Origin: Branchiostoma floridae
Taxonomy: Eukaryota; Chordata; Leptocardii; Amphioxiformes; Branchiostomatidae
Assembly (NCBI RefSeq): GCF_000003815.2
Contig: NC_049996.1
Location: forward strand, 11,812,301 to 11,876,300
Length of the DNA: 64,000 bases
Direction: 5' to 3'
In this document: in pieces, positions 13,074 to 64,000 of the stretch
Position numbering within the stretch: position 1 is the first letter of the stretch
Layout of the letters: every line of letters begins with the position of its first letter
The notes under the pieces: model-generated
The model's input: the letters and a program-made list of their open reading frames with translations, nothing else
Databases searched by the model: none
Told to the model about the DNA's origin: nothing
Made by a program: the position numbers and the translations under genes

Positions 13074-16000
13074 ATGGCTAAGGACCTGCTCCGTCGGGTG
13101 TGGTACCTGTCCCTCGGCGTGACGTTCGGGTATTTTCTCTCCGTTCTTACGGGACATGTGGACAATTCGTACCGAGCCTCAACTCAGAGGAGTACGTCAG
13201 GCGGACTGCCCGTCTATGTGTCGTCTGATTTTCAGGAAAGGCGCGAACTGAAGAGAGGGGTGAAATCGGACCGGTTTATACGCTCGCAGAAGGAATCTGA
13301 GGGCTTGGAAGGTAAGCTGTTGTACATAGAGTAGGGAAAGACTATTATTGCACGATAATGCCATGGTGATAAAGGAGAAGTACATTTTACAGTGTTATAA
13401 GAATGCAATATATTACTACATTTACAATGACTAATGTTTAATAGTATGTGTAACTTTAACTTCTTCTCACTAGAAGCTTCTTAAAACAGCTGTAAATTTA
13501 AGGACAGACGGGACTTGTAAAATATGGTATATCTAATTACATAATATCTCATTGTCCAATGCTATTGAAATATTATTAAATACTTAACCTTGTTTACAAT
13601 TGAAGATGATCGTTGTCCACATTAAAAGGCAGTTATCTTATAAAAGTTGCAACATTCTCTGGTACATCATTTGCTGCCAAAGGTCGTTATTATGTCTATC
13701 TTTCATAGTATGGAGTTTGTGTAAAGTGATTTAATATGATGATGTTACAGCGAGGATTTTTGACTTTTAAAACATCTATCGCTTCAATAGTCTGATCAAT
13801 TACGCGAAGTAACGTTTGGAATGTCCCTGTTGGAAGACATGGAATCAGAACACCTCAACCGTTATGTATGTCATATAGTAAAGAACATTTTATACAGTCG
13901 ATGAGTTGCTGTACATATACAATGTTAAAAACAGATGATGTATATTGATTTATGCTAACCAACGAACAATGTGGCTGACCCTATTTCAATAGCGGCCTTG
14001 TTGAAAGAAACGTTTCCAGATGACAAATCATCGATATAACGAGGGGCAACAAAAGATGACATAAATTCGGACAGCCAATTAACTGAACGTGATTTATTTG
14101 TACCACAGGTGATTGGACGGAGGCGGAAAAAAGGATCATTGAAAGGCACCATGCGAATATACGTCATGTGGGCGTGGCCCAACAACTGGTGCGCAAGATT
14201 CGCGTTCTGTGCTGGATCCTGACGTCACCAAAGAACCACGTTTCCAAGGCAAGGCACGTCAAAGCCACGTGGGGGAAAAGGTGCAACAAACTTCTCTTCT
14301 TCAGCACAAAACCTGACAGCCGACTGCCCACCGTCGTCATAGAAACGGGAGAGGGTCGGGATTTCCTGTGGGGAAAGGCAAAGGCCGCGTTACGTCACAT
14401 ACACGCGCACTACCTGCAGGACGCTGATTGGTTCTTGAAAGCTGATGACGACACCTACATCATCATGGAGAACCTCCGTTTCATGTTGTCCGAGTATACC
14501 CCGGATGCTGCGATGTATTTCGGCTTCAGGTTCAAGACGATCGTGAAGCAAGGGTACATGAGCGGAGGGGCGGGGTACGTCATCAGCCGGGAGGGGGTTA
14601 ACAGAGTCGTACAAGGGTTAAACGTTCCAGGAAAGTGTAAGGAGGGACAAGGTACAAAAATTCACTCATCTACTTAGTATACAGTGGTAACAGATGCGCT
14701 TATCATCTTTATTCGAAATATTTGAATTTATGTACATGTCGGTAACCGTTACCTATCAATTAACAGATTTTAAACTTTCAATGTGACTTTGGAGACCCCA
14801 AGTTCAGGTCACAATTTACTGTAAAACCTCATGCTAATCCTCGGTTTCCTACATGTTAACCACTTTCTAACGTTAGTAATAGGCATGTTCATGATTTCAA
14901 CTGAACATGCGCAGCAACATGCTTTGAGGGTAATGTCAAAGTTGAAGGCCCCTGAAATATAAACGAAGCATACATGAACATGAATTAAGTATGGTTTAGA
15001 CAAAGACTGTTAACGTGTTAGGGGAATTTCACCTTTGACATGTTACCCGTAATGCATCTCACTGCGCATGTGCAGTTGGAACCATGAACACGCTTATTGC
15101 GCTGTTTGCTTGACCCACCAGGTGGCGCTGAGGACGCTGAGTTGGGGAAGTGTATGCAGAACGTCGGTGTGAGGGCCATGGACTCACGTGACCACCAGGG
15201 GAGGGAGCGGTTCCACCCGTTCGACGTCAGCGCCCATCTCCAAGGCGCGTTTCCGGAGTGGTACTACAGATACAGCTTCTATAACGTGTCCAAGGTAAAC
15301 AAACTGCAGTATGTATCTGATTAGATTTGATCTAATTATGGTTATCTTCACGAAGTTCGCTCAAAGTTCACAGAAGGGATGTTTTGCTACTTATCCTCCT
15401 CATTTTCTTCATCTTCTTCTCCAAACAAATCAGGTTAATTACGGGTAAAGTAGAAGTAACTGTGAAGTTTGATAACATTATTTAGCAAGTGGGAGGACAG
15501 AGGTGGAGGGGGTGATATAGATGAATGTGTTTAGTATTTAATTAAAGAATGAACAGAGCACGTATAGTATGTTATGCCAGACCATGTGAAGGTAAGCATT
15601 ACTTTCCACTTATGTTTTTTAGTCTTTAAAAGTTGTGCCCAACATTTGAACAGCACAGCAACGTCCCATTTCACAGGTCGGGGTCTGTTGGGTAACCTGT
15701 AATTGACGATAAATCATTGTTCATTGAAATATCATAGAGAGATCATCCGAAAAACATGGAAACCATGAAAATCTTTGAAAGATCATCGGATGACGCTGGA
15801 AATCACTGATGTGAAAAGCCCTGAAGAGATCTTGCAGTTGAAACGAAACTGCACACGACACTATACTATCTAAGGCTCGCTCCCTGAGAGCGTCGCCAAA
15901 AAATTACGCTCAAGTGCCCGTATCATCGTATGCCGTTGTCCATGGTCCAAGCTGCAGTGTTTGTCTTTTCCGCTAGGGCTTGTCGTGCTGTTCGGACTAC

Positions 16001-26100: not shown

Positions 26101-29100
26101 CTATCCATCAGACAAACAACAACAACTGTGGAGGAAACAGTAACTGCTGTGGACCTAGTGCTGGTGCACCTGGGCCCAGGGTAAGTGTATGACAGCATAA
26201 GTTTATACATGTATAATGTTATACACCTTTTCTCAGTTTACTATGGCAGTTAATTACTGACCCAAGTCTGTATGATGTCATGTTGAGATGTTAGATTTTT
26301 CAAAAGTCATCAAAAGTTTGTAAGATAGTCATGTTCTCAGTATTAAAGGGATCCTTTCAATCCCCTTTGTCAAATATCAATTGACAACCAACTGTAACTC
26401 TTTGTTTCTATAATATGGGCCCTAAAAATGGATCCCCTAGTTAGGTTCTAAAAGTAGTCTGAACACTTTTTTGAGGTGTGTACTTTTGCTAATGAAAAAA
26501 TCAACAGGAAAATTTGGAGCCATCAGCGCAGGTCAAAGATCAGTGTACCAAGCATTTTGAACTTTGGCTGTAATGTCCCATAACAGTCTGCAGTATAGGT
26601 GTAAGCAAACCTGCCATGTCATAAAGTCATTGAGCTTGTTTGTGTACAGTTAATAAGTACACTACAGTTCAGGCAGCCATGGTCACAGGGCATGAAGGTG
26701 CAAATACAGGGGTTCATATTCTTATCAGTCGGTAAACAGGATATTTTTGCACCCATCTTGGACTGTAAAGAATGCTCTCTAGCTACTAGTTTTACCTATC
26801 AGTTTTACCTAGTAGACTGTTCGAAACAATCTGGAGACTTTTTCAAATGGTCTGGAGATTTTTTAAAAGAATCTCCAGATTTTCTGGAAGATCTGGGGAT
26901 TGTTCCAAAATTTCTCCAGATTTTTTTATTTTGAACGGTTTTTCAACATTTTCATATGAACAATGGCCTGGACGCTTTTCATCAAGTATCAACTTTATAA
27001 GTATTAGCTGTAAAGGGTTTGAGGTGTTTGTCCATGGTGCAATATTTGTCCTAACTATTCCGTAGGCTGTTCTCTAAGTTTTCTACTGGATGCTAAGATT
27101 CCAATCTATTTAAGAGATGAGTCGTGTCTTTTGTTTTGTCGTAATTAAAGTGATATACACCAGATCTTATGGACATCAATTTGGATGAAAGCTTGTGTTT
27201 GTAGTAAACCCAAGTGTCAATTACATTGCATAGCCAGAGACATTGACAAACACAACCCTTAGCCTCCGAAACACGTACGTTTTTGTATGTAGACAATAAA
27301 AGAACATCAGCACTGTCTGGTCTGGGTCACAAATCATGATTTTGACGTTTTAAGACTTGGTGTCATTTGTTAGCTTTTATGTGGCCTTTTACCTGTTACT
27401 TGGAAGGGACACAGATACATGTACTTGTTGATGGTTACTAGTGACTAAGTAATTTACTTCACTATGTTTTATTGCACAGCAATAAAACATAGTGACACTA
27501 CCTGAAATTACACTGAAATTACTGTCACTGCAACTTAGAAACATGACAGCTAAGAAACATCCCTTGAACAAATCTCCACCTGTATCCTACCTTGGCATTT
27601 ATCAGAAATTTGTTGCAATAGATCTAAATATATATGGCATACTATTTGAAGAATTGTACACACTGGAAGTTGTCAATTGTAATTACTATTAGCCCCAATG
27701 TAATTGGGCTCTATAAGCCCACCCCTCACTGTCTAGGCAGTGCTATGCCCCAAGATACCATTTTGTCCTTTGTGGGAAACATTCGCTGTCAAGATTGTAG
27801 TAGGTTACATGTTCTATGGCAAGAATAGATAAATGTTAGATTAAAACAGTCGGTGCTGTTTGCGTCAAAGTATGGTATAATAGGCTAAGCCCTTTTTTGT
27901 TATTGGTCGCACACCTGCCTGATGTATCACAATGCTTTTCAACTTAACAGTGACTTCCATGCCTGTGTTGTATGCTAGTGGTAAAAACCAGTGCAGGTGC
28001 ATTTGTAGGTTGTGTGGAAGTAAAGATTAATTGCCTCTTTTATTATAGCATACAGAGCCTCTGTGAAAAGAAAGGGATTTTTTTGGTGTTGGTGTCTGCC
28101 TATTAAAGTTATTTGAATACATGCACTGACAGTAGAGAGGCAGGAAGTGAGTGAGACAATGGGGTCACGACAAAGGTCAGACTCACTGGAGTGACAGGAA
28201 GCAGATTTCAGAGGTGTTAGAGCTAGTCGTTAATCAAACATGACAGTAGAGGTTATGTGGTCAATGGAGCAGGTTTAGCATGGGAGGGTATTTTTTGGGG
28301 TCTGTTTGTATTTTTGGAGTTATACCTTTTCTTGCAGAGTGACAGCAAGTGATTAATCGATACATGCAATTCTAACCAATACCATATTTGGATAATTAAC
28401 GAACGGTAATCAAACAAGACATATATGAGACTCTTTCATGGCGACATGAAATCTTTAAAGTTTTGTTCAAATTGCTAATGCAAGGCTACTGATAAAGACC
28501 AGTGTGTGTGTACACTTGTTATCTTTTATTGCGTTGACTTTCCAGTTCAAGGTCCATGACCTGAGGTAATCAGTGTCATATATTGCTTTGATCAGGGCTA
28601 CCCGGGGTCACGTGGTGCGCCTGGCTTCCCTGGACCGGAGGGTGTGCAGGGGGAGACGGGGATGCGTGGTCCCGCAGGTTTCTCTGGAGACCCTGGAGCA
28701 AAGGGAGAAAGGGTGAGTGAACTTTAGTTTTTTATTCAATTTTGGAAGACAGTGTCTAAGGTTATTTTCTATGATACTACTCTAAACTGTTGCTGCTTTA
28801 AAAAAAAGATTGATTAACAGTTTTCAAATTGGAACTTTGTCAGATTTTACAACCAATTTGATTTCTCACCTACAGGGAGACCCAGGACAGATGGGGCCAC
28901 CTGTAAGTATGAGCTACTTTTTGTTTGGTTTCTTCATTTTGTATGAGTGTTCCCTTGCAATTAGCCTTTGGGCATCAGTTTGCAAATAAAGATTATCGTC
29001 ACAGGCTCACAGCACACTTTTAACATTGATTTCATTGTCCAGTTGGTATGACATGTTAACCGGATGATTTAATTTTTCCCAGGGTATCATAGGGCCTGCT

Positions 29101-32100
29101 GGACCCGCGGGGCCGAGGGGAATACAGGGAGGAAAAGGCAGCAAGGGCACACAGGGTGATCCTGGGTTACGGGGAGAGAAGGGCTTAAGGGTAAGGAATT
29201 GTCTGTCCTTGCTGATTGATAAACATGCAACTTTTCAAACATGGAATTATTATATCAAGTCCTTGAGTGCAAAAATTGTATTCAGATTGATATTGCTGCT
29301 AAGAAGTTTCAACACTAATTTAAAGATTATTTTGAAAAAAAATCTTGATAATGTTTCAGAGCATCTTGACATTGTTTCAAACAATGAATAGATAACTGTA
29401 CAGATTAAAATCATGGAAACTCTTTTTTTTTCTTCAAAAAATTGAAAATAGATTTACTGTGTAATTATCATTGCTGCACTCTTACCATTGCTTGTTATCC
29501 CTTCAACAGATCTAGATAGGCAATAAAATAATTTAGCTTTTCTATTAATAATATTGAATGTTGCAATCTCTGTGCTATCAAGGCATTTCTGTTAACCTTT
29601 TTGCAAAGCTTTTCTTATCTTAGTTATCATATGTTTTCTCAAACAGGGACAACAAGGTCTTCCTGGTATGACTGGTGAACCGGTAAGCAGAAAATTTGTC
29701 TCAGCATAACATTAACTTTAAAATTTTGTGATACATTATCTGTCAGTGAATTCTGTTTCGGGCATCTCATTCAATTGCCTTTTTTTTTTTTTTTTTCATT
29801 ATGATGATATTGTTGAAACGTTATCTTTTGTATTTGTAGGGAAACCATGGAGAGAGTGGGCCCATGGGTATGCCTGGACTCTGTGTAAGTAACCTTCAAA
29901 GATGAGCAAATATATTTGGTCTAGGTGTTCAGGCAGTACCGTAGGTATAGAGGGTAACTTTTTATTTGAGCACTGTCTTCCTTCTAACACTATCTTTTAT
30001 TTTTTTTAATTGTTTTTACACTCAATTTTGTTGTTTTACTTTAAATCTAAATATTTTTGAGGACAGGGCTTTGCTTGCATGGTACTTCTTGCCCGATCCT
30101 CAATAAAAATATGCGAATAAAATGAATGGACATTTTCATTTTATTTTTTCTCCTCTTCTTTTCAATACAGGGACCTAAAGGAGAGGCAGGTAATTGGCTT
30201 AAAGTTTGTTTGATTAGAAATTTTGAATATTCAAGCTTACAATACTTCACCATAATACCTACATCACCACCTTATGGCCATTTTGGGTGAAAAAGTGTTT
30301 GAGTTAGGAGATAATTGTACCAGGACACTAAATACTGATGAAGCAGGGAGTTACGTATTTTTGTGTGTAAACAAGGACAAAATACGTCTGACACAGTGGT
30401 GATTTTTCTTATTCAAACAGGTGTTCCTGGTCTCCCTGGACCCCAGTCTCAAAGTGAGTATGGATACAACACATCATGATCATGTTATAACAAATTTCTT
30501 CATACTCCTTAACAACTGTGTGTTTAAGTTATAAGAATGTCAACAACATCAACTTTATTTTACAACTGAACTTTAATTTAGCAGTATGTCCTCTTGTTAA
30601 GGGCACACATAGTGCTGTAGCAAGCATGCATCAGTATGGGGGTAATGAGTGACTTATACAACATTAAAATGTAGTCAAGTGTTGTTTATATTGGACAAAT
30701 AACCACACACTAAGGCATGTATGGCATATCTGGGCCACGGAGCATAATAGCTAGACAGAGAATGGCTTACTAGGTTTGCATAGTGAAGCTCGCTGTGTTG
30801 GCCTTTATACAGCCTTTGTTAGTGCTGTTGGACATTGTAGTAAGAGTACAATTTTTAACGTGGCCCTAGAAATCATAGAAATACAAAGTTACCAAACACC
30901 AGAGACCACAATAATGTAATCCAACAGACAGCAGCACTGTAGTTTTGTATACTTTTACTTTACTTTTTACATGAACTCAGTTAGGCCACAATGACTTGGT
31001 TTTATGGATAGCATCTGCACATGCACGTCAATTGTTGTCTGTTAAAAAGAAATGTTTGCATCAATACTGTAAGTAGTACAATACAAAGAGGCTGGAAAGA
31101 AACCAATATGCTGTATTACAGTTGCAAAAACAATCTTTTTAGGGAAAACAGACAAATCAAAACAGAATGGCCTTAGTTTAGATGGAGGATCTTTTAGGCT
31201 TCATGAACATGATTTTCATCTATGAAACATATAATCTAATCCACCTCATCCTGCCTTGAAGTGAATCATTATGACATAAGTTAAGAGCGGGAATCTAAAC
31301 TTGTCATTGTCGTGTTTCATCAGCGGAGGGTCCATCGGGTCCATCTGGACCCCCCGGTCTCCCCGGTCAACCAGGCCAGCGGGGCCAGCCTGGGCCGCCG
31401 GGGTCCTCAGGATTCGGCAGCAAGGGAGAGCCTGGACTGCCTGGGAACCCTGGACTGGACGGTGAGTAGCTATCAGTCACTAGTTACCATTCAGTAATAC
31501 AAAAGTGAAATCCATTATCCATTCATTTGTTTGTTCATCGTTCATTCATTGCTATTCTTGTTGTTGTCCTGTGTATACCTGCCATTTTGATGCCCTTATG
31601 TTTCCATGTTAGCAAGTTTTAATACATCATAGATCGAATCATTATGCTACAATTCTAGCCTTTTGAAGTGAAATGTACTAACTTGTTGTGCTTATAATAA
31701 TCTTACTGTTGCAGGACCACCTGGAAACCCTGGGAGACAGGGACCGCCAGGTAGGTTATAAAACTGATCATCTGTAGATTAATAGTAGATCAGAGGAGTA
31801 GAGTTAAGTAAAGTAGAGCAGAGTATAATCTTTGGTCAGAGTCTTGTTGTTGTATTGCTTACTTTCCATGCTACATAGAAGTATGATAGCAGTATGATAA
31901 AATATGAGCTTGTTCAACATCACTTAAGAGCCAGAAAATCTGGAGGTTTAAGAATATTATATCACTGAAAAAGTTGTATTAATTTTCATATATCTTTACC
32001 TGGGGTGTCACAATAAAAATCAACCAACCTTAAAGGGTATTTGTTGAAAGAACATCTCTTGAATCTACTAGATATGATTACTGTGTTTTCCAGTTGAATT

Positions 32101-38100: not shown

Positions 38101-40689
38101 CTTTTGTCATAGCCAGAAAAGTACTTGCCAAAATAGTTCATGCACAAATTTCACAGGCATATTTCCCTCTTTCATTTAGCACTCACACCTGTCCTTGGTG
38201 CTGAATGCAATCCAGGGTCACAAATTTTGTATGACTTTCAATCAACACTCTAGGTCAGGGAGGTTCCAGAACGTTTGACCTGATGACTCGCCACAGCCAG
38301 ACCACCATGGTGCCGCAGTGCCTGCCGGGAATGACCAAAATGTGGGAGGGGTACAGTCTGCTGCATGGGGAGGGAAATGAGAGAGCTCACGGACAGGACC
38401 TCGGTAAGGATGTTTGTAGCTTCATAGTCACAAAGGATGTCACTCACCATACAATGTCATTTGCTATATATTTCAGAGCCACTCGTGAGTCATTAAAATG
38501 GAGATATTAAATGACTTTTTTTTATTTCTTTGTCGTACTGTGTGTCCGCAACTGCCTCCACAGTGATTTGAATTTTGCTAGGCAAACAGACACAAGATTG
38601 GCATTCCTGGCTCAACCTAATGTGTCCTTGGGAAAGGCACTTAAACTGGCTTTCCTCATTCCACCAAAGTACAAAATGAGTACCTGAATTTAGTTGGCGG
38701 GGTAAAGGCAGTGAAAGAAAAGGGATGGGCTCTGCTTTACAATAATTTGCCATGGGCACAGTGTATGACAACTCACTGCCTCAAAAACCCATGGGACGCG
38801 TCTGGACGCGCAGGACGGGGTAAGGACGCGCGGGACGAGGCTGGACGGCCATCCGGGCCGTCCCCGACGGGCGGGGACGCTTAGAATTTTACTGAGGTAC
38901 CTTTTAACATTTTTAATGGATATTTTGATGACATTTTCTTACCAGGTACTGCCGGCTCCTGTGTACAGCGTTTTGCCCCCATGCCGTTCATGTTCTGTGA
39001 CATCAACTTCAACTGTCACTATGCCACCCGTGACGACAAGACCTACTGGCTATCCACTGTTGCTACTGAACAAGAGATCCCAGAAAGCCCTGTGCGAGGA
39101 AACGAGGTTCTGCGGTTCATCTCCCGGTGCGTGGTGTGCGAGGTCCCGTCTACCGTCATGGCATTCCACAGCCAGGGTTCCAACATTCCCGACTGCCCCC
39201 TCCCCACACGGGAGCACAGCTGGCAGAGTATTTGGGAAGGATTCAGTTTCTTCATGGTAAGTCTAACCTTCAATCTTTCAGTTTGTTTGTTTATTTGTTT
39301 TGATGTGTGTCCGTAGCTGTGTCCGGAATGATGTCAATTTTGCCGACTGACAGCTTGTAAGACAAAAGTGGTGCAATAGGAAACCTGGAGAATTGGAAGT
39401 CTGGTTTTTCTGACTTATGTTGTATGATGAAGAGTAACATACAAAGACATCATTTGAAAAGTATTACCTTAAACTGTGATGAGAGGATGTTGGTTGAAAG
39501 GCAAAGCATATGAGAAATAAACACAGAAAATGACATTTTTATACCAATGGTCTTCAAAACATTTTTTTTTACAAAAAATGAATATAACTTGAAAAAATTC
39601 GTTTGTTTTCTCAAAAGCCTAGACTTATATAGAAGCTTAGCTAGAAGCTTACATGTATATGTAGCGTATGTAACAATGTCAATGTTGTTTTCTTCCACAG
39701 CACACGGCTGCCGGAGAGGGCAGCGGTCAGATCTTCTCCAGCCCCGGCAGCTGTCTGGAGAGGTTCCGCCCCGCCCCCTTCATCGAGTGTCACGGAGCGC
39801 GGGGAACCTGCGGCTTCTTTGCCAACAAGTTCAGCTTCTGGCTGGCGTCTGTTCCGGCGTATGTCATGCTTATGATTTGTTTAAAAGATTATGTGGGGGC
39901 CTTTTTTAGTAGATACAAATAGCAGTTAGATTTAGATATGAGTGGTTTAAAAGTAATCAATGTTTAACAATCTCTTACTGTTGGGGGATGAGTGGGCCTC
40001 CTCTTCAAGAGGTTGTGGCCAATCAGCTAAGGTAACCAATCCCTTTTGAGGGTGACCAATGGGAGTTCAGGTCTGTTAATCAATTCAAAAATCCATCCAT
40101 TAGGAGCTCATGATTCTCTATTCTTCACTATGGAAAGCAGTCATCACAGCCTCCAATACCATGGTGACAGACAGTTGACATATTGCTTTAAAGGCTACGC
40201 TGGTCACCATATATATGAGGGTGTTTGAGTAAGAATACAGTAATACAGTGCAGTAGTCTGTTAGGCAGCCACGTGAAGGTTAATATGTATTTGCTTGCAG
40301 TTTGAAATCTTTTACCAAACTCCATCAGTGAACACCCCTCACTTTTATTAAAACTTAGATAAGTTGCTATGTGAAAAAATGTGTTGGTTTCCAGATGTTG
40401 CTTTTTACAACATGACATGTTGTTTTTTTGTTACTATAGTGATTACGACCCACTGAGGAACCAGCAAGCCTACGAGCCGAGAGACGGGCGGGTGAGAGAG
40501 ATGGTGCGTAACCAGCAGCCTGTGACAGAGATGGAGAAGATGGTGGGACGGTGCCGTGTGTGTATGATGATCACCGACACCGTTCGGGCTAAGATCTCCG
40601 AGGTGGGGCCGGTGAGAGGAGCCAGGCCTGGCATCATCATCGGAGATCCCAGATTGCGTGCACCACAGCCACCACGCCCCAGCTCTTAA
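20114..40689 (+). CDS. Short collagen with type IV NC1 (C4) domain, spongin short-chain-like, 25 exons
   Basis: Exons: 20114-20174, 25178-25275, 26112-26180, 28596-28712, 28876-28902, 29083-29190, 29647-29682, 29840-29884, 30171-30189, 30421-30453, 31324-31461, 31715-31750, 32130-32165, 32454-32489, 32776-32820, 33041-33115, 33678-33722, 35027-35086, 35602-35637, 36304-36354, 36895-36939, 38254-38403, 38946-39256, 39701-39858, 40440-40689. They sum to 2085 bases (694 aa) in one frame. Exon 1 is a signal peptide ([14 protein letters not shown]). Exons 2-3 encode an Asn-rich segment and a CGGNSNCC knot. About 330 residues of Gly-X-Y follow, with one break near exons 10/11. The last four exons encode a type IV NC1: [42 protein letters not shown], and a second C4 half ending GRCRVCMM; all 12 cysteines are present. 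About 40 extra residues follow. True type IV chains have some 1400 collagenous residues, so this fits the spongin short-chain family: extracellular, trimeric. Missed in-frame Gly-X-Y exons cannot be excluded. Confidence 0.88.
21240..21406. mobile_element. Foldback/MITE-like element with about 60-bp arms
   Basis: Left arm 21240-21300 (CGCCTTTTCCTGAGTCTGG...) and right arm 21346-21406 (...CCAGACTCAGGAAAAGGCG) are inverted copies with few mismatches, separated by a 45-base loop. There is no coding sequence. This is the form of a non-autonomous DNA element or a foldback repeat. Confidence 0.75.
22035..22785. mobile_element. Candidate non-autonomous DNA transposon with about 70-bp inverted termini
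   Basis: The left end (22035-22105, containing ATCGTAGGATTTTCAAG and GGAACCAACCGCCGGCAGA) is matched in inverted orientation by the right end (22710-22785, containing CTTGAAAATCCTACGACATC and GTCGGTAGTTGGTTCC). The 0.6 kb between has no coding sequence. Single-ended relatives of the terminus lie near 7435 and 18740, so the terminus belongs to a dispersed family. Confidence 0.6.
23567..23762. mobile_element. MITE-like element with 30-bp inverted termini
   Basis: Left terminus 23567-23596 and right terminus 23733-23762 are inverted copies (shared core GGGGCCTGGCCGGG) with about four mismatches over 30 bases. The interior shares words with sequence near 23060-23120 (GGGAAC-AAAAGTAT), which may be a decayed relative. 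Confidence 0.6.
27459..27495. repeat. Perfect 17-bp inverted repeat with 3-base loop
   Basis: TCACTATGTTTTATTGC (27459-27475), loop ACA, then GCAATAAAACATAGTGA (27479-27495) form a perfect hairpin in collagen intron 3. The right arm contains AATAAA. Confidence 0.85.
28105..28345. repeat. Dispersed repeat copy in collagen intron 3
   Basis: This block shares an ordered series of words with 11720-11990 (GACAGGAAG...GTGAG, AGAGGTTT/GTT, CTAGT..TTAATCA, GGTCTGT.TGT, GTTATAC). A shorter match lies near 57990-58070. The family is not identified. Confidence 0.5.
33175..33540 (+). repeat. GT-rich minisatellite in collagen intron 16
   Basis: Irregular units of TTCAGCACCAAGGACAGGCA alternate with (TG)n runs, about five unit copies. 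The several open frames across it are an artefact of the repeat. The same core recurs at 41.9, 42.8, 56.7 and 58.5 kb. Confidence 0.85.
33723..35026 (+). other. Collagen intron 17
   Basis: There is no in-frame Gly-X-Y exon with splice signals. A GC-rich motif at about 33928-33968 holds two copies of TAAGACGG. The rest is AT-rich and unassigned. Confidence 0.4.
35275..35535 (+). repeat. tRNA-derived SINE copy in collagen intron 18
   Basis: A pol III-like head (GGTTTGATTCCTGG resembles a tRNA B box) is followed by GTGTCCTTGAAAAAGGCACTTTACA, a body motif typical of invertebrate tRNA-SINEs, and by GGAGTACCTGAATTTG. The second copy at 38555-38775 shares these body motifs in the same order and orientation. 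Confidence 0.65.
35811..36032. mobile_element. MITE-like element with 36-bp inverted termini
   Basis: AACGCTAGTTCACCTTTATC (from 35811) is mirrored by GATAAAGGTGAACTTAGCGTT (ending 36032); the arms extend through the AGGGTAACC/GGTTACCCT pair. The total is 222 bases, non-coding, in collagen intron 19. A fragment GGTTCACCTTTATGC at about 41218 suggests further copies. Confidence 0.75.
36655..36820. repeat. Dispersed repeat copy in collagen intron 20
   Basis: It shares AGCAAGTGG.AGGACAG, GTTTGAGTAAGAATA, GTTAGGC.AGACCATGTG.AGGTAA and ATTTGCTTGCAGTTTGAAATCT with 40190-40320, and partly with 15483-15600. It is a dispersed family of unknown type. Confidence 0.55.
36969..37866. mobile_element. 0.9-kb element with 12-bp terminal inverted repeats and octamer-rich tandem interior
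   Basis: It is bounded by TACCTTCGCCAA (36969-36980) and its perfect inverse TTGGCGAAGGTA (37855-37866). The interior is a degenerate tandem array of about 120-130 bp units. The last four each contain an ATGCAAAT/ATTTGCAT inverted pair (about 37407, 37533, 37663 and 37781). It sits in collagen intron 21 and has no coding sequence. A truncated relative (TTTCGCCAAGAATGTTATATTTTG) lies at about 56987. Confidence 0.65.
38555..38775 (+). repeat. tRNA-derived SINE copy in collagen intron 22
   Basis: GTGTCCTTGGGAAAGGCACTTAAACTGGC, GAGTACCTGAATTTAGTTGG and a GGGATGGGCTCTGC-like tail match the copy at 35275-35535, in the same orientation. The tRNA-like head is more decayed here. Confidence 0.6.
38790..38880. 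repeat. GC-rich block with GGACGCG repeats
   Basis: A short region of very high GC holds several GGACG/GGACGCGC words and a GGACGGCC...GGCCGTCC inverted pair. It is embedded in an AT-rich intron between two NC1 exons. It is unlike the surrounding composition. Confidence 0.6.
40130..40330. repeat. Dispersed repeat copy in collagen intron 24
   Basis: This is the counterpart of the repeat at 36655-36820 (shared GTTTGAGTAAGAATA and TTTGCTTGCAGTTTGAAATC). The upstream part also shares CAGACAGTTG.CATATTGCTTT with about 36510-36535. Confidence 0.55.
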
Positions 40690-42165: not shown

Positions 42166-42774
42166 AAGATCGCATTCACACCACTCTATAACCACTTACT
42201 ACAATCATTTTGCTTATGGATTTTTTTTAGTTTAAAAGAAGAACATACGTCCAATGATAAAAACTATAAGCTGTTCACATGACGCATTGAAATGTTCAAG
42301 CACATTCAAACAAGTTGATTTAGATCATCAAATTTTTTGGATACTAATGTTGATGCGAGCCAAAAACGTCTAGATGTTAACTCGTGGTATAGTCCGTCCG
42401 TTTCTTTTGTTTTTGGAGTGTTGGAATGTGGAATATTTTTTGCGACGCCTCAGGGGCGTAGGCAGTCTTTACAGTATTACGATTGCTTTGAAAATATTTA
42501 AAAAATTGCACGGATGCATTCCCTAGGGAATTGGTTTTGAAGTAGCCTTTGCCTGTTCTTTTGTCGGGACAGAAACGGCCTTTGTTTCTTGTTAAAGTCA
42601 CTTACTGTTTCGGGCAATTTGCTTCTTTAAGCACTAAAAACATTGCCATAATCAATGTTTTAAGTACGTTTTTCTGTTTCTGGCAAATGAGAGCAAAATA
42701 GTGTCAATATTACAACTTTTAATCCCTCGTTTGGTGTTCTTTGAGACAAATAGGAATACTAGATAAAGACGTGT

Positions 42775-42965
42775 TTGCCTGTGTTTGGATGGTGTTCAGT
42801 ACCAAGGGACAGGCGCGTTTACCTGTGTGTGGATGGTGTTCAGCACCAAGGACAGGTCTGTTTGCTTGTGTGTGTGGATGGTGTTCAGTACCAAGGACAG
42901 CAAGTTTGCCTGTGTGTGGATGGTGTTCAGTACCAAGGACAGCATGTTTGCCTGTGTGTGGATGG
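42775..42965 (+). repeat. Tandem repeat, about 45-bp unit, over 4 copies
   Basis: Units read GTGTGGATGGTGTTCAGTAC, CAAGGACAG, then GTTTGCCT. The reading frames across it are repeat artefacts. The core is shared with the other minisatellites of the window. Confidence 0.9.
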
Positions 42966-43480
42966 TATTGAATTCATGTGCATAATACAGATTCAAGTAA
43001 ATGTTTGCAATGATTCTATGTTCGTTGTTTTGAGTTCCCCTCCGCTAGTCTGTTTACACAAACTGCGCTATCAGGGCTGTATCTGGCCCTCCGGTAAGGG
43101 GCGGCGGATGTTGGACGGGCTGCTATAAGTGCGAATTCATCAGACTACCCCCAAACTTGGCACATCGAATCTTCCATTAATTTTTCCCTATTGAACTGCT
43201 TCTATCGCGAAAGTGAATTGAGTTACAATAATGGTAAAAATCGAGCAAATATTTCCGTTCAGTTACATCGTGTGGTTGTATAAAAGCTTATCCGTGAAAA
43301 CTTTGTTGACAACAGAAAGTTTCTTGTCACTCTGTAGCTGTATTTCTAGGTTGTTTTAGAAAAGTCTTTTCTGAGATTTAGTTATTTCTAGTTCTAATTA
43401 GATTAGCAGCTTCAGATCAATCAGACAGGCTATTTTCAACACCTGTGTAAAAAAAACACGTTTGGCACGGCCCGACCAAA

Positions 43481-56599: not shown

Positions 56600-56930
56600 C
56601 AAACATTTATGTCCTTAGAGCTGAAGACCTTCCACACACACATTAGGACATGCCTGCCCTTGTAGCTGAACACTATGAACGCATAGGCAAACATTCCTGT
56701 CCTTGGTGCTGAACACCATCTATAAACAACCAAATATTCCTGTCTTGGTGAACACCAATAATACATAGTCAAACATTCCTGTTCTTGGTGCTGAACACCG
56801 TTTATGCATAGTCAAACAGTCCTGTCCTTGGTGAACACCATTAACACAAAGTCAAAACAGTCCTGTCATTGGTGCTGAACACCATCCAAACATGCCAAAC
56901 TTATCTATCCTTGGTGCTGAACAACTTTTT
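56600..56930 (-). repeat. Minisatellite, about 45-50-bp unit, in reverse orientation
   Basis: About seven degenerate copies of CATTCCTGTCCTTGGTGCTGAACACC occur here, the reverse complement of the CAGCACCAAGGACAGG core seen at 33, 42 and 42.8 kb. Confidence 0.88.
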
Positions 56931-57380
56931 CTTCTTCTTCGTGTTAGTTGGCCACCATCAGCTTGTTGATGCTTCTGCCTTAATCACTTTCGCCAAGAAT
57001 GTTATATTTTGTGCAGCGTTTGTGTTTGTGTGTGTTTTAATACCCAAGATTTTTCCAATAAGTATTGCAGACTATTAGAAAGAGGTATATACAATCCTGA
57101 AGCAGAGGAGCATACTGTTCATATAGCTTCATTAATTCTTTTCTATTCATACGTGATGAAGCAATTTTCAGACTATGATTCCACAATCTCATATATCTTT
57201 AATAACAGATAACGTTAATATAACGTAAAGCAGATAAGTTTAGATAGCTACTGTGTGCTTGAATATATGAACATTTTTTATCACCTGCGTATAATTTGTT
57301 GGGGGTTTATCTAACGTGAGCTACTACTACTCTACTATATACTGTGAGCTACTACTACTCGTTACGTTTTCCTGTTCCCT

Positions 57381-60300
57381 TTAAAGATGTTCCTTTTCAT
57401 GTTCTATGACTTGAGCCAAGTTATCGTAGCATCTACCAAATCTTCTCTCAAATTTTCTATCACTCTCGGCACCTGCTGTTGTCTCGTCCTCTCTCGCGAT
57501 ACTTGAGTCCCAAGCCAAACTAGTATAGTCATTGTTTTCAGTGGTCTCTGGAATAAGTACTTGATAATCACGTTCAGAATCAGTAGCAAGTAATTCGCTA
57601 GAGGATGACGCTGATATCGGGCTTAAGTTTTCCATATCACTCTCCCTGCCTGCTGTGGTCTCGTCCACTCTCGCGAGAGTTGAGTTTAACGCCAGGCGTG
57701 TATAGTCATGGTCTCCAATCGTCACGGGAATAAGTTCCTGGTAGTCGGCTCCAGTTGGAATGGTCGGGAACTCGCAGGTAGAAGTGGACGAACTCCATGA
57801 TGCCGATGGTATGTTCTTCATTTCAAGAACATCAGGAATTTCTTCATAATCATGATCAGACATTTCGGAATCCTCTGTCAACCTGCAAACGTGCGAAAAG
57901 TGTCAGTGATATTTCGGTGAAGGTTTGACAACATCATTCATTCTTCATGTCCTTTACCAACTTTGGCTGAAAGCTTACAAACATTCCAGGTCATGGGGTC
58001 AATGGAAGAGGCCACTAATTCAGAGGGAGTTTTTATGTTTGGTCTGTCTATATTCTCTCAAAAATATGATCACCGTAGAGTACTAGTATCAGGAAGTTAG
58101 CAGTGGACAGATTAAAACCTTATTTGTAGAATCAATGAACTATGTACAATAACACAAGACATACGAGGGACTAAAATCTTGCACAGCTAATACAATCTGT
58201 ACAAGCCAAGTTAAAAGCTTGCTTGGCACGTTATTTATAGTACTAGCTCTTACCTTCTCCCTCTTCTACGTCTGAAGACGAAAAACGCGTTCACAATGCA
58301 AGAAATTAGAAGAACCGTAGCCACTGTCCCGGATACTATTGTGGACACTTGCAGTTGAAATGACCCCGTCTCTGGAAAACAATTAACATTGTTGTTGACT
58401 GTTGAAAGTGAAAACAATACACTTAGCGAAGTATTAAACCCGATTGTAAACCTTGGACACAATCTACTCCTAGCCAAACATTCATGTCCTTGGTGCTGAA
58501 CACCATCGACAAATAGTCAAACATGCCTGTCCTTGGTGCTGAACACCATGAACAAATGGTCAAACATGCCTGTCCTTGGTGCTGAACACCATCGACAAAT
58601 AGTCAAACATTCATGTCCTTGGTGCTGAACACCATCTACTCCTAGCCAAACATGCATGTCCTTGGTGTTGAACACCTCTAACTCACAGTCACATGTTCCT
58701 GTCCATGGCTCAAGTGAGAGATGATTTGTTGTAGGATCACGTGACTCACCGGTGCAATATGGACCTTGGACGTCGAAGCGTCTATTTTCCTGACACTCCA
58801 CTGCGACTGCGCGTCCGTCCTTGCACGTGACCGTCACTCGTTGACCAATGAGAGCGAGTGAAGGAGACACGGACCCGACGTGTGCGTCATTGGAGATGGC
58901 TTCACAGTGGCCAACAGCTTCGAGAAAACACACAGAAAATTTAAAAGAAACTTCTCTGGTAACTTTTAAACAGCGAAAAACTTAAATACCATCAACATTC
59001 AGTGATAAGTTATGAGCATCGCCATCTATTTGTTTAACTTCAACCTAAGATGTTTTTATTCATGGCCAGCTGAGACACTCACCTTCATAATGCAGAATGA
59101 ATCCACGTCTCAGCTGCTCCCCTTGCGGTTTTGTCCGGAACTGTATGCTGATGACATTGCTACCGCTGATATACTCTGTATCTGGTGACCAGTTCAGATG
59201 TTTGACGCGTCTTTGAGACGAGCCACACTCTCTTATCTGCAAAACGTCATCTGGGGATAGTTCTGATAGTTCTAAAGTGACCCTAACAACATTTTCAGAG
59301 TGAACTTGTATGTTCCACGTGCAGTTCTGGTTTGGAGAGTACGGCCCAGGGAAGTCTGGCGAGTAGATAGTTCCTCTGTCATTGTTTAAGTCACCTCCAC
59401 AGGCACCGATAGAAGCTGAAAAACAGGTTGACACTGTTTACTTAGCTTTCTTTATAAGAAAGGCTCTAATGTGTACTCTGAACGACCTGACTTAATGACC
59501 GTGTACAGCATTGGACCAGAGCCAAACTAGTCTTCTAATTGTTCGAGTATCGTATTACACCATTTCTGCATTATTTCCTGTCACTTTGTAATGTGCACAT
59601 ATCTACAAACTCGCCAGCTGACGAATCGTCCGAATTAATTAGAGGCGAAAAAACACATATTTCTTCAATACCAAAGAAAGGAAGATGTAGATGACGCTGA
59701 CAGGTTAGAGAGATTACCGCCTTACCTTCAAACACTTCGATTTTCTGCGAGCCGCTTGGTCCTCCACAAAACTGGGACTTGTCTCCTCCGCACGGTGCAG
59801 TGCAATCCGAATCCGGTAGTCGGCGCGACACAACGGTGTCGCCTTGAAAGCCATTACCACAGCGGCACCCGTACCTGTTGACCACCCCTGCGTACCTATG
59901 TTCAGACGACCTACAGAACGCCAGACAGCCTTGGACTGTCATTTTAGTGGCGGAGGTGGCCAGGCCGGACAATACAGGGCTCTGATAGGGGTTATCTTGG
60001 TAGCACCCCAGAGACGTGGGAACTGTAGGGAAGGACGTGAATGGGGTTTTTAAATAACAGATCGTTTTCGTGATACGCGATGGGTCTGAGGTCACACTTA
60101 ATATACGTCGATAGAAAAGTGCATTTCAAGAACTGTTTGTTTGTGGAAATACATTATGTAGTTGTATGTGTAGTTTGGATATTCATAATGGTTTTCAAGG
60201 TCCACTTTCCCCATGTCATATGCTGATCTTAGATTGCATTTCGCATTACTCCGAACATTATTTGTTTGTACCTTTATATCAGTATTGAAAATGATAAACA

Positions 60301-60595
60301 AGCGTGGATTGAATCTAATGTTTACCTCGGACGTTCATGATCTGTTATACATTTCCTGAACTCGGGGAAAGATCCTAGCGTTTCTTTCATTTAGCGCCAC
60401 TAGTAACCTTTGTTCACTGGACTGGACGATCAAATATTTCTACGACATTGCGAATAATAATATTCAGGTAGCAAAACGTAATTAGATAAAATAAAGTAAA
60501 ACTTGACACGTACCTGGAACCTTAGCAGCCGTAAGTATGATCGCCTTTGCGACAAAACAAAACGTATAGATTGTCTGAAATTTTCCCTCAGTCAT
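57381..60595 (-). CDS. WSC-CUB-CCP-like transmembrane receptor with duplicated ITAM-like tail (6 exons, 499 aa)
   Basis: Minus-strand exons 60595-60514, 60022-59726, 59415-59083, 58917-58750, 58371-58254 and 57882-57381 total 1500 bases with one stop. The start at 60595 is preferred over an upstream Met (60667) because it opens directly into a signal peptide (FVAKAIILTAAKV). Exon 2 is a WSC domain (residues about 32-125: LGCYQDN, GCLAFC, YGCRCGNG, CTAPCGG, QFCGG). Exon 3 is a CUB domain (about 127-237: CGGDLNNDRGTIYSPDFPGP, YSPNQNCTW, SIQFRT). Exon 4 is a four-cysteine sushi/CCP-like module. Exon 5 is a transmembrane helix (STIVSGTVATVLLISCIVNAFFVF) followed by RRRRGRR. The final exon is an acidic 167-residue tail. 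It has YEEI (Tyr345), YQEL-x9-YTRL (Tyr380/393), YQVL-x9-YTSL (Tyr439/452) and YDNL (Tyr485). WSC plus CUB recalls Kremen, but there is no kringle. The ligand is unknown; a signalling receptor role is inference. Confidence 0.88.
58465..58705 (-). repeat. Minisatellite in intron 4 of the WSC-CUB receptor
   Basis: Five copies of a 46-48-base unit contain CATGCCTGTCCTTGGTGCTG followed by AACACCAT. It lies between the CCP-like exon and the transmembrane exon. An open frame reads through from the CCP exon into it, but the CCP exon has a donor at 58749/58748, so that extension is not coding. Confidence 0.92.
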
Positions 60596-62536
60596 CGTGG
60601 ATGTAGGATATTTCGGCCTAGCGCAGTCAATTGCACACCTTGTCTTCAGTTCACCACCAGAAAGCAAACTGGGACATGTTACAACGACGTACGCGTCTGT
60701 AGGATATCCTTAAGGCCTTGCTGATGACGTGTGTTAGCAAGAAGATTGTCTTCGAATCTTCCTTTTTCCAAGAAAGGAACCTTAATACCTAAGAGGTCGT
60801 TAACCCAAGACACCGGAGGTGCCCGAGGCGTCTTCCTTGTTGTCTGAAAGTCGCAGGTGTCTTAAGTCGTCGTCTGTGCGCATTCAAAACAGCACCAATG
60901 GTTCAGCTTAAAGTCGAAATATCATGAAATAACTGACGGATGCGAACCTTTACATGCAGTTTGAACCAGACCTTCGAAGAAAAGAACTGCTTGTTGTATA
61001 AGGCAAGGTGTTCTGTCAGGCGAAGATAAGATCTCAAGAGGACGGAAGTGAAAACAGGGGACACTTAACGGCTGTCAATCTTCGTCTTCCGCAGGGCTCA
61101 CAGGGAAAACTTTAAATTATGCTCCTCCAAACTATCCACGAGACTAATCCTGACTATCCACCACAATGCATTAGCACTTTAACCAATGATAGCATGGCAA
61201 TTAAGCGGTTCATCCAATGAAAGTGTCCCTGCATGTCCGTCAAATATATAGTTGCAGATGCATGTTATGTTTTTATTTTGCATTTCTCCTTTTTGGCGGA
61301 GGTGGATCTGGATATGAGATATATATATATATACTGGTTGTGTTTATTGTCTTCAGTATGAACCCTTCCTAAAATGCCCCTAGCCTGCTCTGGTTTAATG
61401 ACATATGTCAATCACCGACAGTTCGAAATGTTTACGTGTACTAGACGCCACCTGTTTTTGTTTTGTATTTGTTTATTGTCTTTCGTAAGTTACGTCAGTG
61501 AAAAACTCAAATAACGCTACGCTTTATTGTTGTTGATACACATGTAATCTGTTTATCCCTTCAACACAAGTAGCCTTTCCCCGCTCTTGACCTCAGGTAA
61601 CCCCTGTATCTCAAATATTTCTACTTCCTGTACTCTGACGTCATGTCCGGTTGGTTTCCACAGAATGCGCGGGAAAAGCAATAACCACTTTGAAATTGTT
61701 GTAAAATGTTTTTCTCTCAGATGAGACACAACAGATTTCAGTAAGCACTTTCAGCTAAGTAAGTCAGTTAGGGGAACCACTATATGAATGTTATGAATAA
61801 TATTTTAATATTCTCGTTAGGAGGGCTGGCGAAGTACCTGATCTGGTAATTATTTAGCCACACAATTACTTGAAGCAGCACTGGTCTGTTTTCTGCCCCT
61901 CCCCCTGCATAACACACACACTTCCACACACAAACACTGAAATCATTTCACAACGGTCAGTAGTTATTCGAAATGTTTATTTAAAGCCAATATGTTCTGA
62001 CTTTGCATGTCTAACAGCTAAATGCATATGCCCAGACAACGACAAACGAATAAGTGTTTTGATGTAGCTTGTTTTGAAATAGTTCGAATAAAGCGTGTAA
62101 CGTTAGTTTTAATAGCTTAATACATGGTTATGTGATTGCGAGGGAGGATCCTATCTCATGATCAATTCATTTATAAGAATAAATAATATTACGAAGCTGC
62201 ATACACCAAATACAAAACCTAACAACAGCTATGGTATAAAGCAAGCACTACTTATGATCTACTTGTGCTTTTTGTATTGAAAAGATTTAATCCCCATTGC
62301 TGACTAAAATTATATTTAACAAAATTATACTAGCAAGCGATGTTTGGACCAAATATCTCTTATAGATTACAGATTATATAAACTATCATTTAAGGCCAAT
62401 CATATGGAATTTCAAGGATCTCTGACTTCTGTGCAGTACACGGATTTTTTTCATCAATACACTTCATGACAACAATGATCTGGTGTGCAGTTTACACCAA
62501 TATCGGGAGGTTGCGTTGCTGTCGTTGACATGCCAA
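60596..62536. other. Intergenic region between receptor and small secreted protein genes
   Basis: The stretch next to 60600 should hold the receptor's promoter, but no clear TATA or initiator was singled out. An (AT)n run lies at about 61318-61332. No gene was recognised on either strand. Confidence 0.45.
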
Positions 62537-63291
62537 TCAATCTTCGTCTTCCTCTTCCGCCGCGACTTTCACGTCAGCCGGGCAGCACTCCGTGATCTCC
62601 TTGTCGACGCAGCCCTTGTCGGACGAGCAGCACTCCATGCTCAGCGCTTTGCACTGCATTTGCTTCAGGAAGCCAGAGGCTTTCTTAGCCCCCTCGGCTG
62701 AAAAAACACAACACAGAAAGAATGAGTGAGTGAGTGAGTGAGTGAGTGAGTGAATGAGTGAATGAATGAATGAATGAATGAGTGAGTGGGTGGGTGGGTG
62801 GGTGAGTGAGTGAGTGAGTGAGTGAGTGAATGAATGAATGAATGAACGAACGAACGAACGAACGGACGGATGAAGGAATGAAGTCCTTTATAATAAGCTA
62901 TCCGAATTTCTTAGCTGATTGTAACATGATATTACTGATATGCCCGAAGTTCCTATTCTGTAGCTTGTAGTTGACCGTAAGAAAGTCACCGTAGTTTTTG
63001 TTGGGTCAAAATCTTCCCTATAGTCATTTAGTAGTAATACTTACTGTAGGACTCGAACTCGCTCTTGCACAGCGTGTTGTAGGACTTGGTCAGAGCCTTG
63101 TCCTTTTCTGTGTCACAGCGCTTCTTTTTCCCTTCCTCGTCCTCGTCGCCGCCGAAGAAGAACCAGCCCCGCCGCTGCTTCAGGGCACGCAGCCGCTGCA
63201 CGGCGGTGTCCCACGCCTCCTCGTCCGACCGGTCCGACGCCGAGGCCACGGTGGCGAGAATCACCACGAGAGCGAGAACAGACAGCTTCAT
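62537..63291 (-). CDS. Small secreted cysteine-rich acidic protein, complete (2 exons, 135 aa), unknown family
   Basis: Exons 63291-63045 and 62697-62537 join in phase 1 across a GT-AG intron, giving 135 residues. Residues 1-18 form a textbook signal peptide (MKLSVLALVVILATVASA). The N-terminal part of the mature chain is charged and has a hydrophobic island, RRGWFFFGGDEDEE, followed by GKKKR. The C-terminal half has eight cysteines arranged C, C, C, CC, C, CC (KRC, TLC, MQC, ECC, KGC, ECC) and ends in a run of acidic residues. Dibasic and polybasic sites flank GWFFFGGDEDEEG, so proteolytic processing is possible. I do not recognise a family. Secretion is well supported; everything else is open. 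The first exon is GC-rich compared with its surroundings. Confidence 0.82.
62721..62880. repeat. Tetranucleotide microsatellite (GAGT/GAAT/GGGT/GAAC)
   Basis: About forty tetranucleotide units run in blocks of GAGT, GAAT, GGGT, GAGT, GAAT and GAAC, in the single intron of the small secreted protein gene, 24 bases from its acceptor. Confidence 0.95.
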
Positions 63292-63389
63292 CGTTCAACT
63301 TGTGGTCTGGGTTTTAACGACAGAACATAGAAAACGATTCATGTGGGACGAACGTATGGATGGTGTCGTTTTTTCTAAAAGGGGTTCAC

Positions 63390-63410
63390 ACGTGCGTATA
63401 TATATGCACA
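63390..63410 (-). promoter_or_regulatory. TATA box-like element of the small secreted protein gene
   Basis: TATATATAT at 63397-63405 lies about 105-115 bases upstream of the minus-strand ATG, a plausible distance for a TATA box with an 80-base 5' UTR. Confidence 0.4.
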
Positions 63411-63509
63411 TGTACTGTAAGTAGGTATTATACTATATTTATAGACCTCACGAAAGTAGCTGTGTTACCTTAATTTGTTGTGTCAAAATAAAGAATTCCT
63501 ATATTCAAG

Positions 63510-63723
63510 TCCGTATGGAGTTCTTAGCCTTTATCAGCAGGCTCCACAGATCACGTAGTAGTTGGACAAATATAGATACATAACATGCCAAAGGTAGTGT
63601 AGCTGTCTATGGTTTGCGACCTTGCTAACTCGTCTGGCATGTTATCTATCTATATTTGTCCAATGTCTGTCATTTGTCCAGCAACCCGAGGGGCCTGGTG
63701 GAGGCTAAGACTTCTATACGGAT
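63510..63723. mobile_element. MITE-like foldback element with about 80-bp arms
   Basis: TCCGTATGGAGTTCTTAGCC (from 63510) is mirrored by GGCTAAGACTTCTATACGGA (ending about 63722), and TGGACAAATATAGAT.CATAA by TTAT.TATCTATATTTGTCCA near the centre. The fragment GGCCTGGTGGAGGCTA also occurs at about 13030, just upstream of the galactosyltransferase start. Confidence 0.72.
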
Positions 63724-64000
63724 CTCAGACTGTAATATGTACGCTCGTGTGAACCCACCAGTCCTTTATTGTACTGTACTGTATTGTACTGAGTAGTTAC
63801 CCTATGGTGCCGGTGAATGGTATAGAAAATCTAAGTTTCGAATTCGGAAAGTTTGCAATTGGTGAACAACTATTAAAACACATGCGCTGTTAACAATAAT
63901 CTCTTACTGCCACCTAGTTTACTACTCCCTACGATGGCAGAAAGAGAGATTAGCCATGCTCTGAGTTATGCCTTCAGGGCAAATCTGCACTCTCTCTCCC
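63724..64000. other. Window end, nothing recognised
   Basis: It contains a short TGTACTGTACTGTATTGTAC run near 63770-63790. No coding or RNA feature was seen. Confidence 0.4.

What the first reader, a model, noticed from the sequence alone, without database searches (positions are those of the whole stretch)
57381..57882. Two ITAM-like motifs in the tail of an invertebrate WSC-CUB receptor
The cytoplasmic exon encodes YQEL-IPVTIGDHD-YTRL and YQVL-IPETTENND-YTSL. Both fit YxxL/I-x(6-12)-YxxL/I, with nine residues between. Each Tyr follows an Asp. The tail also has YEEI (the preferred Src-family SH2 ligand) and YDNL (YxN, Grb2-like). Seen in sequence: the motifs and their position after a transmembrane helix. 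Known: phosphorylated ITAMs recruit tandem-SH2 Syk/ZAP-70 kinases. Inferred: this is an activating receptor carrying its own signalling tail. I know of no described WSC-CUB receptor with tandem ITAMs.
Basis: partly seen in the sequence, partly recalled or inferred. Interest (0 to 1): 0.82.

Follow-up and report, generated by a model that had tools for sequence, protein, structure and literature searches.

The report
Amphioxus receptor with exchangeable ITAM-like tail
This cell-surface protein, apparently from a lancelet, carries in its inner tail the paired-tyrosine code that vertebrate immune receptors use to switch cells on, and relatives in the same genome suggest that this tail has been exchanged between different outer parts.

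Summary
On the minus strand at 57381-60595, six modelled exons encode WSC, CUB, a sushi-like domain, a transmembrane helix and a 166-aa tail. All six tail tyrosines lie in YxxL/I. Two pairs are YxxL-x9-YxxL; they are one unit doubled by a 177-nt in-frame duplication, with dN 0.19 against dS 0.88. The genome is an amphioxus by inference. Two paralogues with a related ectodomain and the same intron phases keep the unit. A further copy of the transmembrane and tail exons lies behind fibrinogen, Ig and FN3 frames on another contig. L022, whose ectodomain is 77-78% identical to those two, has an unrelated tail. So the ITAM-like tail looks like an exchanged module. An activating, Syk-type receptor is the best reading but is untested. 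Asp at -1 suits Syk-family kinases better than Lck (PMC5089863, passages). The nearest described protein, amphioxus WSC receptor BbLcLRR, is inhibitory (PMC8211107, passages). My Syk search did not complete. New variant of a known kind.

The parts
60514..60595 (-). candidate exon 1 (start codon, weak signal-peptide-like stretch), end phase 1
   Evidence: hydrophobic stretch; not confirmed; three paralogues have a lectin-like exon upstream of WSC that tblastn did not find here
59726..60022 (-). exon 2, WSC domain
   Evidence: Pfam WSC E 6.1e-17; exon limits
59083..59415 (-). exon 3, CUB domain
   Evidence: Pfam CUB E 5.2e-12; exon limits
58750..58917 (-). exon 4, four-Cys sushi(CCP)-like domain
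   Evidence: no Pfam hit of its own; homologous to L022 exons (tblastn E 2.7e-13), which match Pfam Sushi at E 5.1e-7; all-strand model, pLDDT 86, no PDB fold match at E<=0.001
58254..58371 (-). exon 5, transmembrane helix and basic stop-transfer cluster
57381..57882 (-). exon 6, cytoplasmic tail of 166 aa plus stop
57837..57848 (-). YEEI, membrane-proximal motif (HDYEEI here; HDYDMV in L025, HEYDMV in L024; tyrosine lost in the C15 copy)
57693..57746 (-). ITAM-like unit 1, DYQELIPVTIGDHDYTRL
57516..57569 (-). ITAM-like unit 2, DYQVLIPETTENNDYTSL
57636..57746 (-). first copy of the duplicated unit (177-nt spacing)
   Evidence: 76% over 112 nt; dN 0.187, dS 0.877 over 37 codons
57459..57569 (-). 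second copy of the duplicated unit
57417..57428 (-). YDNL, YxN motif (YENT in L024, YENS in L025)
   Evidence: Grb2 preference for YxN recalled

Best explanation
A type I receptor of a small amphioxus WSC-CUB-sushi family that signals through its own ITAM-like tail. Ligand (probably a glycan or a microbial or damaged-cell surface, inferred from the domains) clusters the receptor. The YxxL pairs are phosphorylated, and a tandem-SH2 kinase of the Syk family docks on each doubly phosphorylated pair. Asp at -1 suggests that this kinase can then spread phosphorylation along the tail itself. YEEI would hold a Src-family kinase and YDNL would recruit Grb2. Shown: gene model, motifs, duplication, low dN/dS, recurrence in paralogues. 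Inferred: every biochemical step. The transmembrane and tail exons behave as a module joined to different ectodomains at the phase-1 intron before the transmembrane exon.
For: Motifs and architecture. Unit kept after duplication: the six D-Y..L/D-Y..L codons have no replacement while three have silent changes; block dN/dS about 0.21. L024 and L025, same phases from WSC to tail, hold YQALDPRTMCNSEYMSL and YQALDPSTMGNTDSEYTSL; tail dN/dS 0.25 between them. Window tail against theirs: 4 and 11 of 2000 shuffles reach the score. Tail family found at four loci. D at -1 in 5 of 6 tyrosines, net charge -25, fits the Syk/ZAP-70 preference (PMC5089863, passages). Draper and MEGF10 use ITAMs read by Shark and Syk (PMC8092387, passages); Syk-family kinases occur in invertebrates (PMC9601881, passages).
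Against: No phosphorylation, binding or expression data. The search for a Syk gene in this genome did not complete (nine calls). In 2017 no amphioxus Zap70 homologue had been reported (PMC5431462, passage). The schistosome Syk lacks the SH2 residues for ITAM binding (PMC2820527, passage), so an invertebrate Syk need not read ITAMs. Asp at -1 is not tolerated by Lck, so how the first phosphate is placed is unclear; two tyrosines also have Arg within two residues (YTRL, ERDYQVL), which the ZAP-70 rule disfavours. Spacing of nine exceeds the classical six to eight (recalled). The nearest described amphioxus receptor is inhibitory. YxxL is also an endocytic signal (recalled). Sparing of the six motif codons alone is P 0.058.
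Confidence: 0.47

Rival explanations
1. Endocytic or scavenger receptor: the YxxL/I motifs are sorting signals read unphosphorylated by the AP-2 adaptor, and the receptor internalises bound cargo.
For: All six tyrosines fit YxxPhi; YTRL resembles strong AP-2 signals (recalled); lectin-like exon in paralogues, below the Pfam cut-off.
Against: AP-2 needs one motif, not pairs at near-fixed spacing (recalled); what is shared by the four units is the pair with its acidic -1 residues, while the membrane-proximal tyrosine is lost in the C15 copy.
Confidence: 0.2
2. Inhibitory or switch receptor: phosphorylated tyrosines recruit SHP2 or SHIP-type phosphatases, as in amphioxus BbLcLRR.
For: BbLcLRR has LRRs, a WSC domain and HDY/DDY tail sites, is phosphorylated in an Lck-dependent way and inhibits TCR signalling in Jurkat cells (PMC8211107, passages). 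Its functional sites DDYATV and HDYSEV also lack the hydrophobic -2 residue and are called amphioxus ITIMs there; by that looser use the window's sites would qualify. An SHP2-like tandem-SH2 gene is present (named by recall).
Against: None of the six tyrosines has I, V, L or S at -2, so none fits the strict ITIM consensus (contexts). The +3 residue is L/I in spaced pairs.
Confidence: 0.18
3. LAT-like scaffold: the tail is mainly a substrate of a Syk-family kinase brought by another receptor, and gathers single-SH2 adaptors rather than Syk itself.
For: Acidic tail, Asp at -1, YxN near the end; ZAP-70 substrate rules in PMC5089863 (passages).
Against: Paired spacing is not expected of a scaffold; the large ectodomain suggests a primary receptor (inference).
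Confidence: 0.12

Closest known systems
BbLcLRR, amphioxus Lck-associated LRR receptor (PMC8211107; passages seen)
   Same: Amphioxus, WSC domain outside, single TM, tail tyrosines preceded by Asp (HDY, DDY), phosphorylation depends on Lck in cells
   Different: LRR ectodomain instead of CUB and sushi; ITIM or ITIM-like single sites; inhibitory; no YxxL pairs reported in the passages read
Kremen 1 (PDB 5fws, 7bzt)
   Same: Best PDB sequence match, E 2e-28 over residues 5-164 of the query, that is WSC and half of CUB; order WSC-CUB-TM (recalled for Kremen)
   Different: No kringle signature found on the minus strand of 57301-64000 by a simple pattern scan; Kremen has no ITAM known to me (recalled). 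A kringle occurs in the more distant amphioxus gene L028
Draper / MEGF10 engulfment receptors (PMC8092387; passages seen)
   Same: Own ITAM in a single-pass receptor, read by Shark or Syk
   Different: EMI and EGF ectodomain, NPxY motif besides the ITAM
Vertebrate paired receptors (recalled)
   Same: Closely similar ectodomains joined to different tails
   Different: Ig or C-type lectin ectodomains; here the function of the other tail is unknown

Membership tests
ITAM-bearing receptor | YxxL/I-x(6-12)-YxxL/I in a cytoplasmic tail | tested here: met
   two copies, spacing nine; also in L024, L025 and the C15 copy, spacing 9, 11 and 9
ITAM-bearing receptor | motif conserved by selection among relatives | tested here: met
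   paralogues only: 2 of the 3 nearest-ectodomain paralogues keep it, L022 has another tail; tail dN/dS 0.25 L024-L025, 0.40 L025-C15, 0.77 L024-C15; orthologues in other species not tested
ITAM-bearing receptor | double phosphorylation and tandem-SH2 (Syk/ZAP-70) binding | not testable with these tools
   no biochemistry; Syk search unanswered (nine calls)
ITIM receptor | I/V/L/S at -2 of YxxL/V/I | tested here: inconclusive
   0 of 6 tyrosines by the strict consensus (contexts), but the functional sites of amphioxus BbLcLRR fail it too
Kremen | kringle-WSC-CUB-TM order | tested here: inconclusive
   WSC and CUB met; no kringle signature on the minus strand of 57301-64000 (simple pattern scan); exon 1 uncertain
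Draper/MEGF10 | EMI and EGF repeats | tested here: not met
   Pfam gives only WSC, CUB and a weak CUB_2 on the modelled protein
Paired receptors | closely similar ectodomain, different tails | tested here: met
   L022 against L024 and L025: ectodomain 77-78% aa, CUB exon 94% DNA to L024, DNA matches end at the sushi exons; L025 and window tails unrelated to L022's by shuffles
Paired receptors | opposite signals | not testable with these tools
   L022-type tail (YAQP, YAKP, VDNVLY) has no assigned function

The most novel reading that the evidence does not exclude
Amphioxus builds receptors by exchanging a transmembrane-ITAM exon cassette: closely similar ectodomains are made with an ITAM tail or a different tyrosine tail, and the same cassette is put under a fibrinogen-Ig-FN3 ectodomain. 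This would be an invertebrate counterpart of paired activating and non-activating immune receptors, made by exon exchange.
Probability: 0.3. Interest if true: 0.8.

Novelty: new variant of a known kind. Interest (0 to 1): 0.62.

Why it matters
ITAM signalling is central to vertebrate lymphocytes. Amphioxus homologues of Lck, SLP-76, GADS and Itk are described (PMC8211107, PMC5431462; passages), but in the listings and passages I saw no amphioxus receptor with an ITAM was named (two of the 22 papers were opened). A natural set of receptors with matched ectodomains and exchanged tails gives a direct test of whether ITAM and non-ITAM tails already gave different outputs in a basal chordate.

Tried and rejected
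Pfam and PDB sequence search for exon 4 gave nothing useful; its fold model found no match at E<=0.001. A single-sequence model of 55 residues is weak evidence either way. The sushi assignment rests on the paralogue exons.

The window tail alone as a protein query found only itself and two weak matches at E 3.7 and 4.7. The L025 tail found three loci above noise, itself, L024 and C15, and three weak ones at E 1.5-3.9; the window gene, more diverged, was not among them. The DYQxLxPxT pattern links all four.

Of the 10 pattern matches (4 for the reversed control), 5 lie in the four ITAM tails and 5 do not continue into a second YxxL; those 5 are taken as chance.

A tree of seven ectodomains has no starred branch; L022+L024+L025 has support 87/91, and the ITAM label needs two changes, little fewer than shuffled labels (mean 2.3). 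In that tree L022 was entered without its first sushi copy, L023 has no WSC, L026 no sushi, and the C4 genes were left out. Whether L022 lost the ITAM tail or the others gained it is open.

The tyrosine-kinase search (141 matches, 134 of 1264 candidates scored) was swamped by kinases in single long frames and did not locate Syk. The SH2 search gave 60 matches; six small stretches from four candidates were read and look like SHP2, PI3K p85, PLC-gamma and an unassigned one (named by recall).

In one search the sixth query (29 aa) was mistyped and is disregarded. The queries held four residues upstream of exon 2, and one search had approximate junction residues; one search used the model.

Full report
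WHAT IS THERE. The minus strand of 60595-57381 reads as six exons: a candidate first exon, WSC, CUB, a four-cysteine sushi-like exon, a transmembrane exon and a tail exon, with five GT-AG introns and end phases 1,1,1,1,2, giving 499 aa. Pfam gives WSC (E 6.1e-17) and CUB (E 5.2e-12); the best sequence match among solved structures is Kremen 1 (E 2e-28). The sushi-like exon has no match of its own, but is homologous to paralogue exons, of which the L022 pair matches Pfam Sushi (E 5.1e-7). The first exon is the weakest part: its hydrophobic stretch is modest, and L022, L024 and L025 carry before WSC an exon resembling a SUEL lectin (L025 E 9.2e-5, but 23.2 bits against a cut-off of 31.4; L024 no match) that tblastn did not find in the window.

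ORGANISM. The genome has 513.4 Mb in 431 contigs and the window is G000:C18:11812301-11876300. Rfam finds mir-2060 four times; the one paper in the library that holds this name is on Branchiostoma belcheri (listing only).

THE TAIL. It has 166 residues and net charge -25, and 6 of 6 tyrosines are in YxxL/I. Two YxxL-x9-YxxL pairs sit in a 177-nt in-frame tandem duplication, 76% identical over 112 nt. Over the 37 aligned codons dS is 0.877 and dN 0.187; the six D, Y and L codons of the pairs show no replacement and three silent changes, while 13 of the other 31 codons have replacements (P 0.058 for sparing all six by chance). As a yardstick, the bare motif appears 25 times in the six frames of the window, so the motif alone proves little; the composition shuffles and above all the paralogues carry the case.

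PARALOGUES. A search with the ectodomain gave 92 matches at E<=0.001, a lower bound (144 of 318 candidates scored): by my count 75 in the CUB part, 11 in WSC and 6 in the sushi part. I read nine stretches around the WSC-CUB ones. L025 (C18, 18.51 Mb) and L024 (C18, 7.53 Mb) have the same order and phases from WSC to tail; their first exons were not modelled. Their tails hold YQALDPSTMGNTDSEYTSL and YQALDPRTMCNSEYMSL, a membrane-proximal HDYDMV / HEYDMV where the window has HDYEEI, and a later YEN where the window has YDN. Four units align with invariant D-Y-Q-x-L-x-P-x-T...Y-x-x-L. Of 2000 shuffles of the window tail, 4 and 11 reach its score against L024 and L025. L024 and L025 tails have dN/dS 0.25.

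MODULE EXCHANGE. L022 (C18, 7.68 Mb) has an ectodomain 77-78% identical to L024 and L025 and 57% to the window's, and its CUB exon is 94% identical to L024's in DNA, but the DNA matches end at the sushi exons and its tail has 0 ITAMs and 0 of 6 tyrosines with acidic -1. That tail is kin to those of L023 (E 3e-8) and L027 on C14 (E 3e-5). A genome search with the L025 tail finds three loci above noise, itself, L024 and C15:14.797 Mb; the window gene joins them by pattern. At C15 the transmembrane and tail exons are 79% identical in DNA to L024's and follow open frames for two fibrinogen domains, an Ig and three FN3 domains, with a fourth FN3 below its cut-off; 3 of the 10 frames sent had no match. 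The C15 tail keeps the ITAM pair but has lost the membrane-proximal tyrosine, and its dN/dS is 0.77 to L024 and 0.40 to L025, so it may be decaying. Its donor after the transmembrane exon, GTTTGT, is weak, and that the fibrinogen and FN3 frames belong to the same gene is inferred from order, strand and a possible phase-1 acceptor. All these joins fall at the phase-1 intron before the transmembrane exon.

THE WIDER FAMILY. More distant WSC-CUB genes on C4, C17 and C14 carry other tyrosine tails; one C4 gene, L028, has a kringle frame (Pfam E 1.3e-8), while a second frame sent, from L030, had no match. So the family is Kremen-like at large. Some of those tails show V-x-Y-x-x-L/V by eye, closer to ITIM; I did not build those genes.

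MECHANISM. From passages of PMC5089863: ZAP-70, like Syk, strongly prefers Asp at -1, and Lck does not tolerate it. The window tail has Asp at -1 in 5 of 6 tyrosines. Against a simple rule stands BbLcLRR, whose HDY and DDY sites depend on Lck in Jurkat cells (PMC8211107, passages), though ZAP-70 is present there and the effect could be indirect (my inference). BbLcLRR is also an amphioxus WSC-bearing receptor, and it is inhibitory; its sites, like those here, lack the hydrophobic -2 residue of a strict ITIM. The schistosome Syk lacks the residues that bind ITAMs (PMC2820527, passage). The activating reading is therefore kept at 0.47.

LITERATURE. Terms searched in the open library: ITAM with amphioxus (22 papers, 20 listed); ITAM, invertebrate, Syk, receptor, CUB domain (0); WSC domain, CUB, ITAM (0); the full ITAM name with invertebrate and Branchiostoma (3); amphioxus, Syk, ZAP-70, tandem SH2, any three (86, 15 listed); Draper, ITAM, Shark and others (17, 12 listed); WSC domain with amphioxus (1, BbLcLRR); ITAM-like, invertebrate, Syk, evolution, receptors (1); Kremen with amphioxus (17, 10 listed); mir-2060 (1). 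I saw passages of six papers (with 23, 39, 41 on the first) and read none whole. No described WSC-CUB ITAM receptor turned up in these; subscription papers are mostly not covered.

NOT DONE. Orthologues, transcripts and Syk itself. The Syk query was sent nine times and never answered.

Noticed in passing
window 42772-42966 and 58471-58676 (also 56648-56923): The Rfam microRNA family mir-2060 matches lie inside 42-43-nt minisatellite arrays in the first two places; this amphioxus 'microRNA' family may be a dispersed tandem repeat. Arrays of the same kind lie on both sides of the tail exon.
   Followed up: partly
L022 against L024/L025 (C18 7.68, 7.53, 18.51 Mb): L022 has a closely similar ectodomain but a different TM and tail with YAQP, YAKP and VDNVLY motifs; its tail is kin to those of L023 and L027.
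   Followed up: partly
L022, L024, L025 upstream of WSC: SUEL lectin-like exon (below the Pfam cut-off in L025, no match in L024), not found in the window by tblastn.
   Followed up: partly
L027 6278-6799, minus strand: A frame with many repeated YxAL / YxTL motifs spaced by acidic stretches, on the strand opposite to the C14 WSC-CUB gene.
   Followed up: no
G000 C12 0.6-0.98 Mb, C8 24.05-24.10 Mb, C7 24.41-24.45 Mb and others: Clusters of tyrosine-kinase-like domains, many in single open frames of about 900-970 aa, so apparently intronless.
   Followed up: no
window 38885-39313 (+): Type IV collagen C-terminal (C4) domain, E 2.2e-27; a collagen repeat just below its cut-off at 29068-29388.
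   Followed up: no
window 14093-14674 (+): Fringe-like glycosyltransferase frame, E 1.6e-13.
   Followed up: no
window 1748-5482 and 8452-10653 (+): Two long Thr-rich mucin-like open frames, each with a CCTTDLCN stretch near the start, no Pfam match.
   Followed up: no
window 62540-62700 and 63031-63294 (-): Small secreted-looking Cys-rich protein, probably in two exons; no Pfam match to the first.
   Followed up: no
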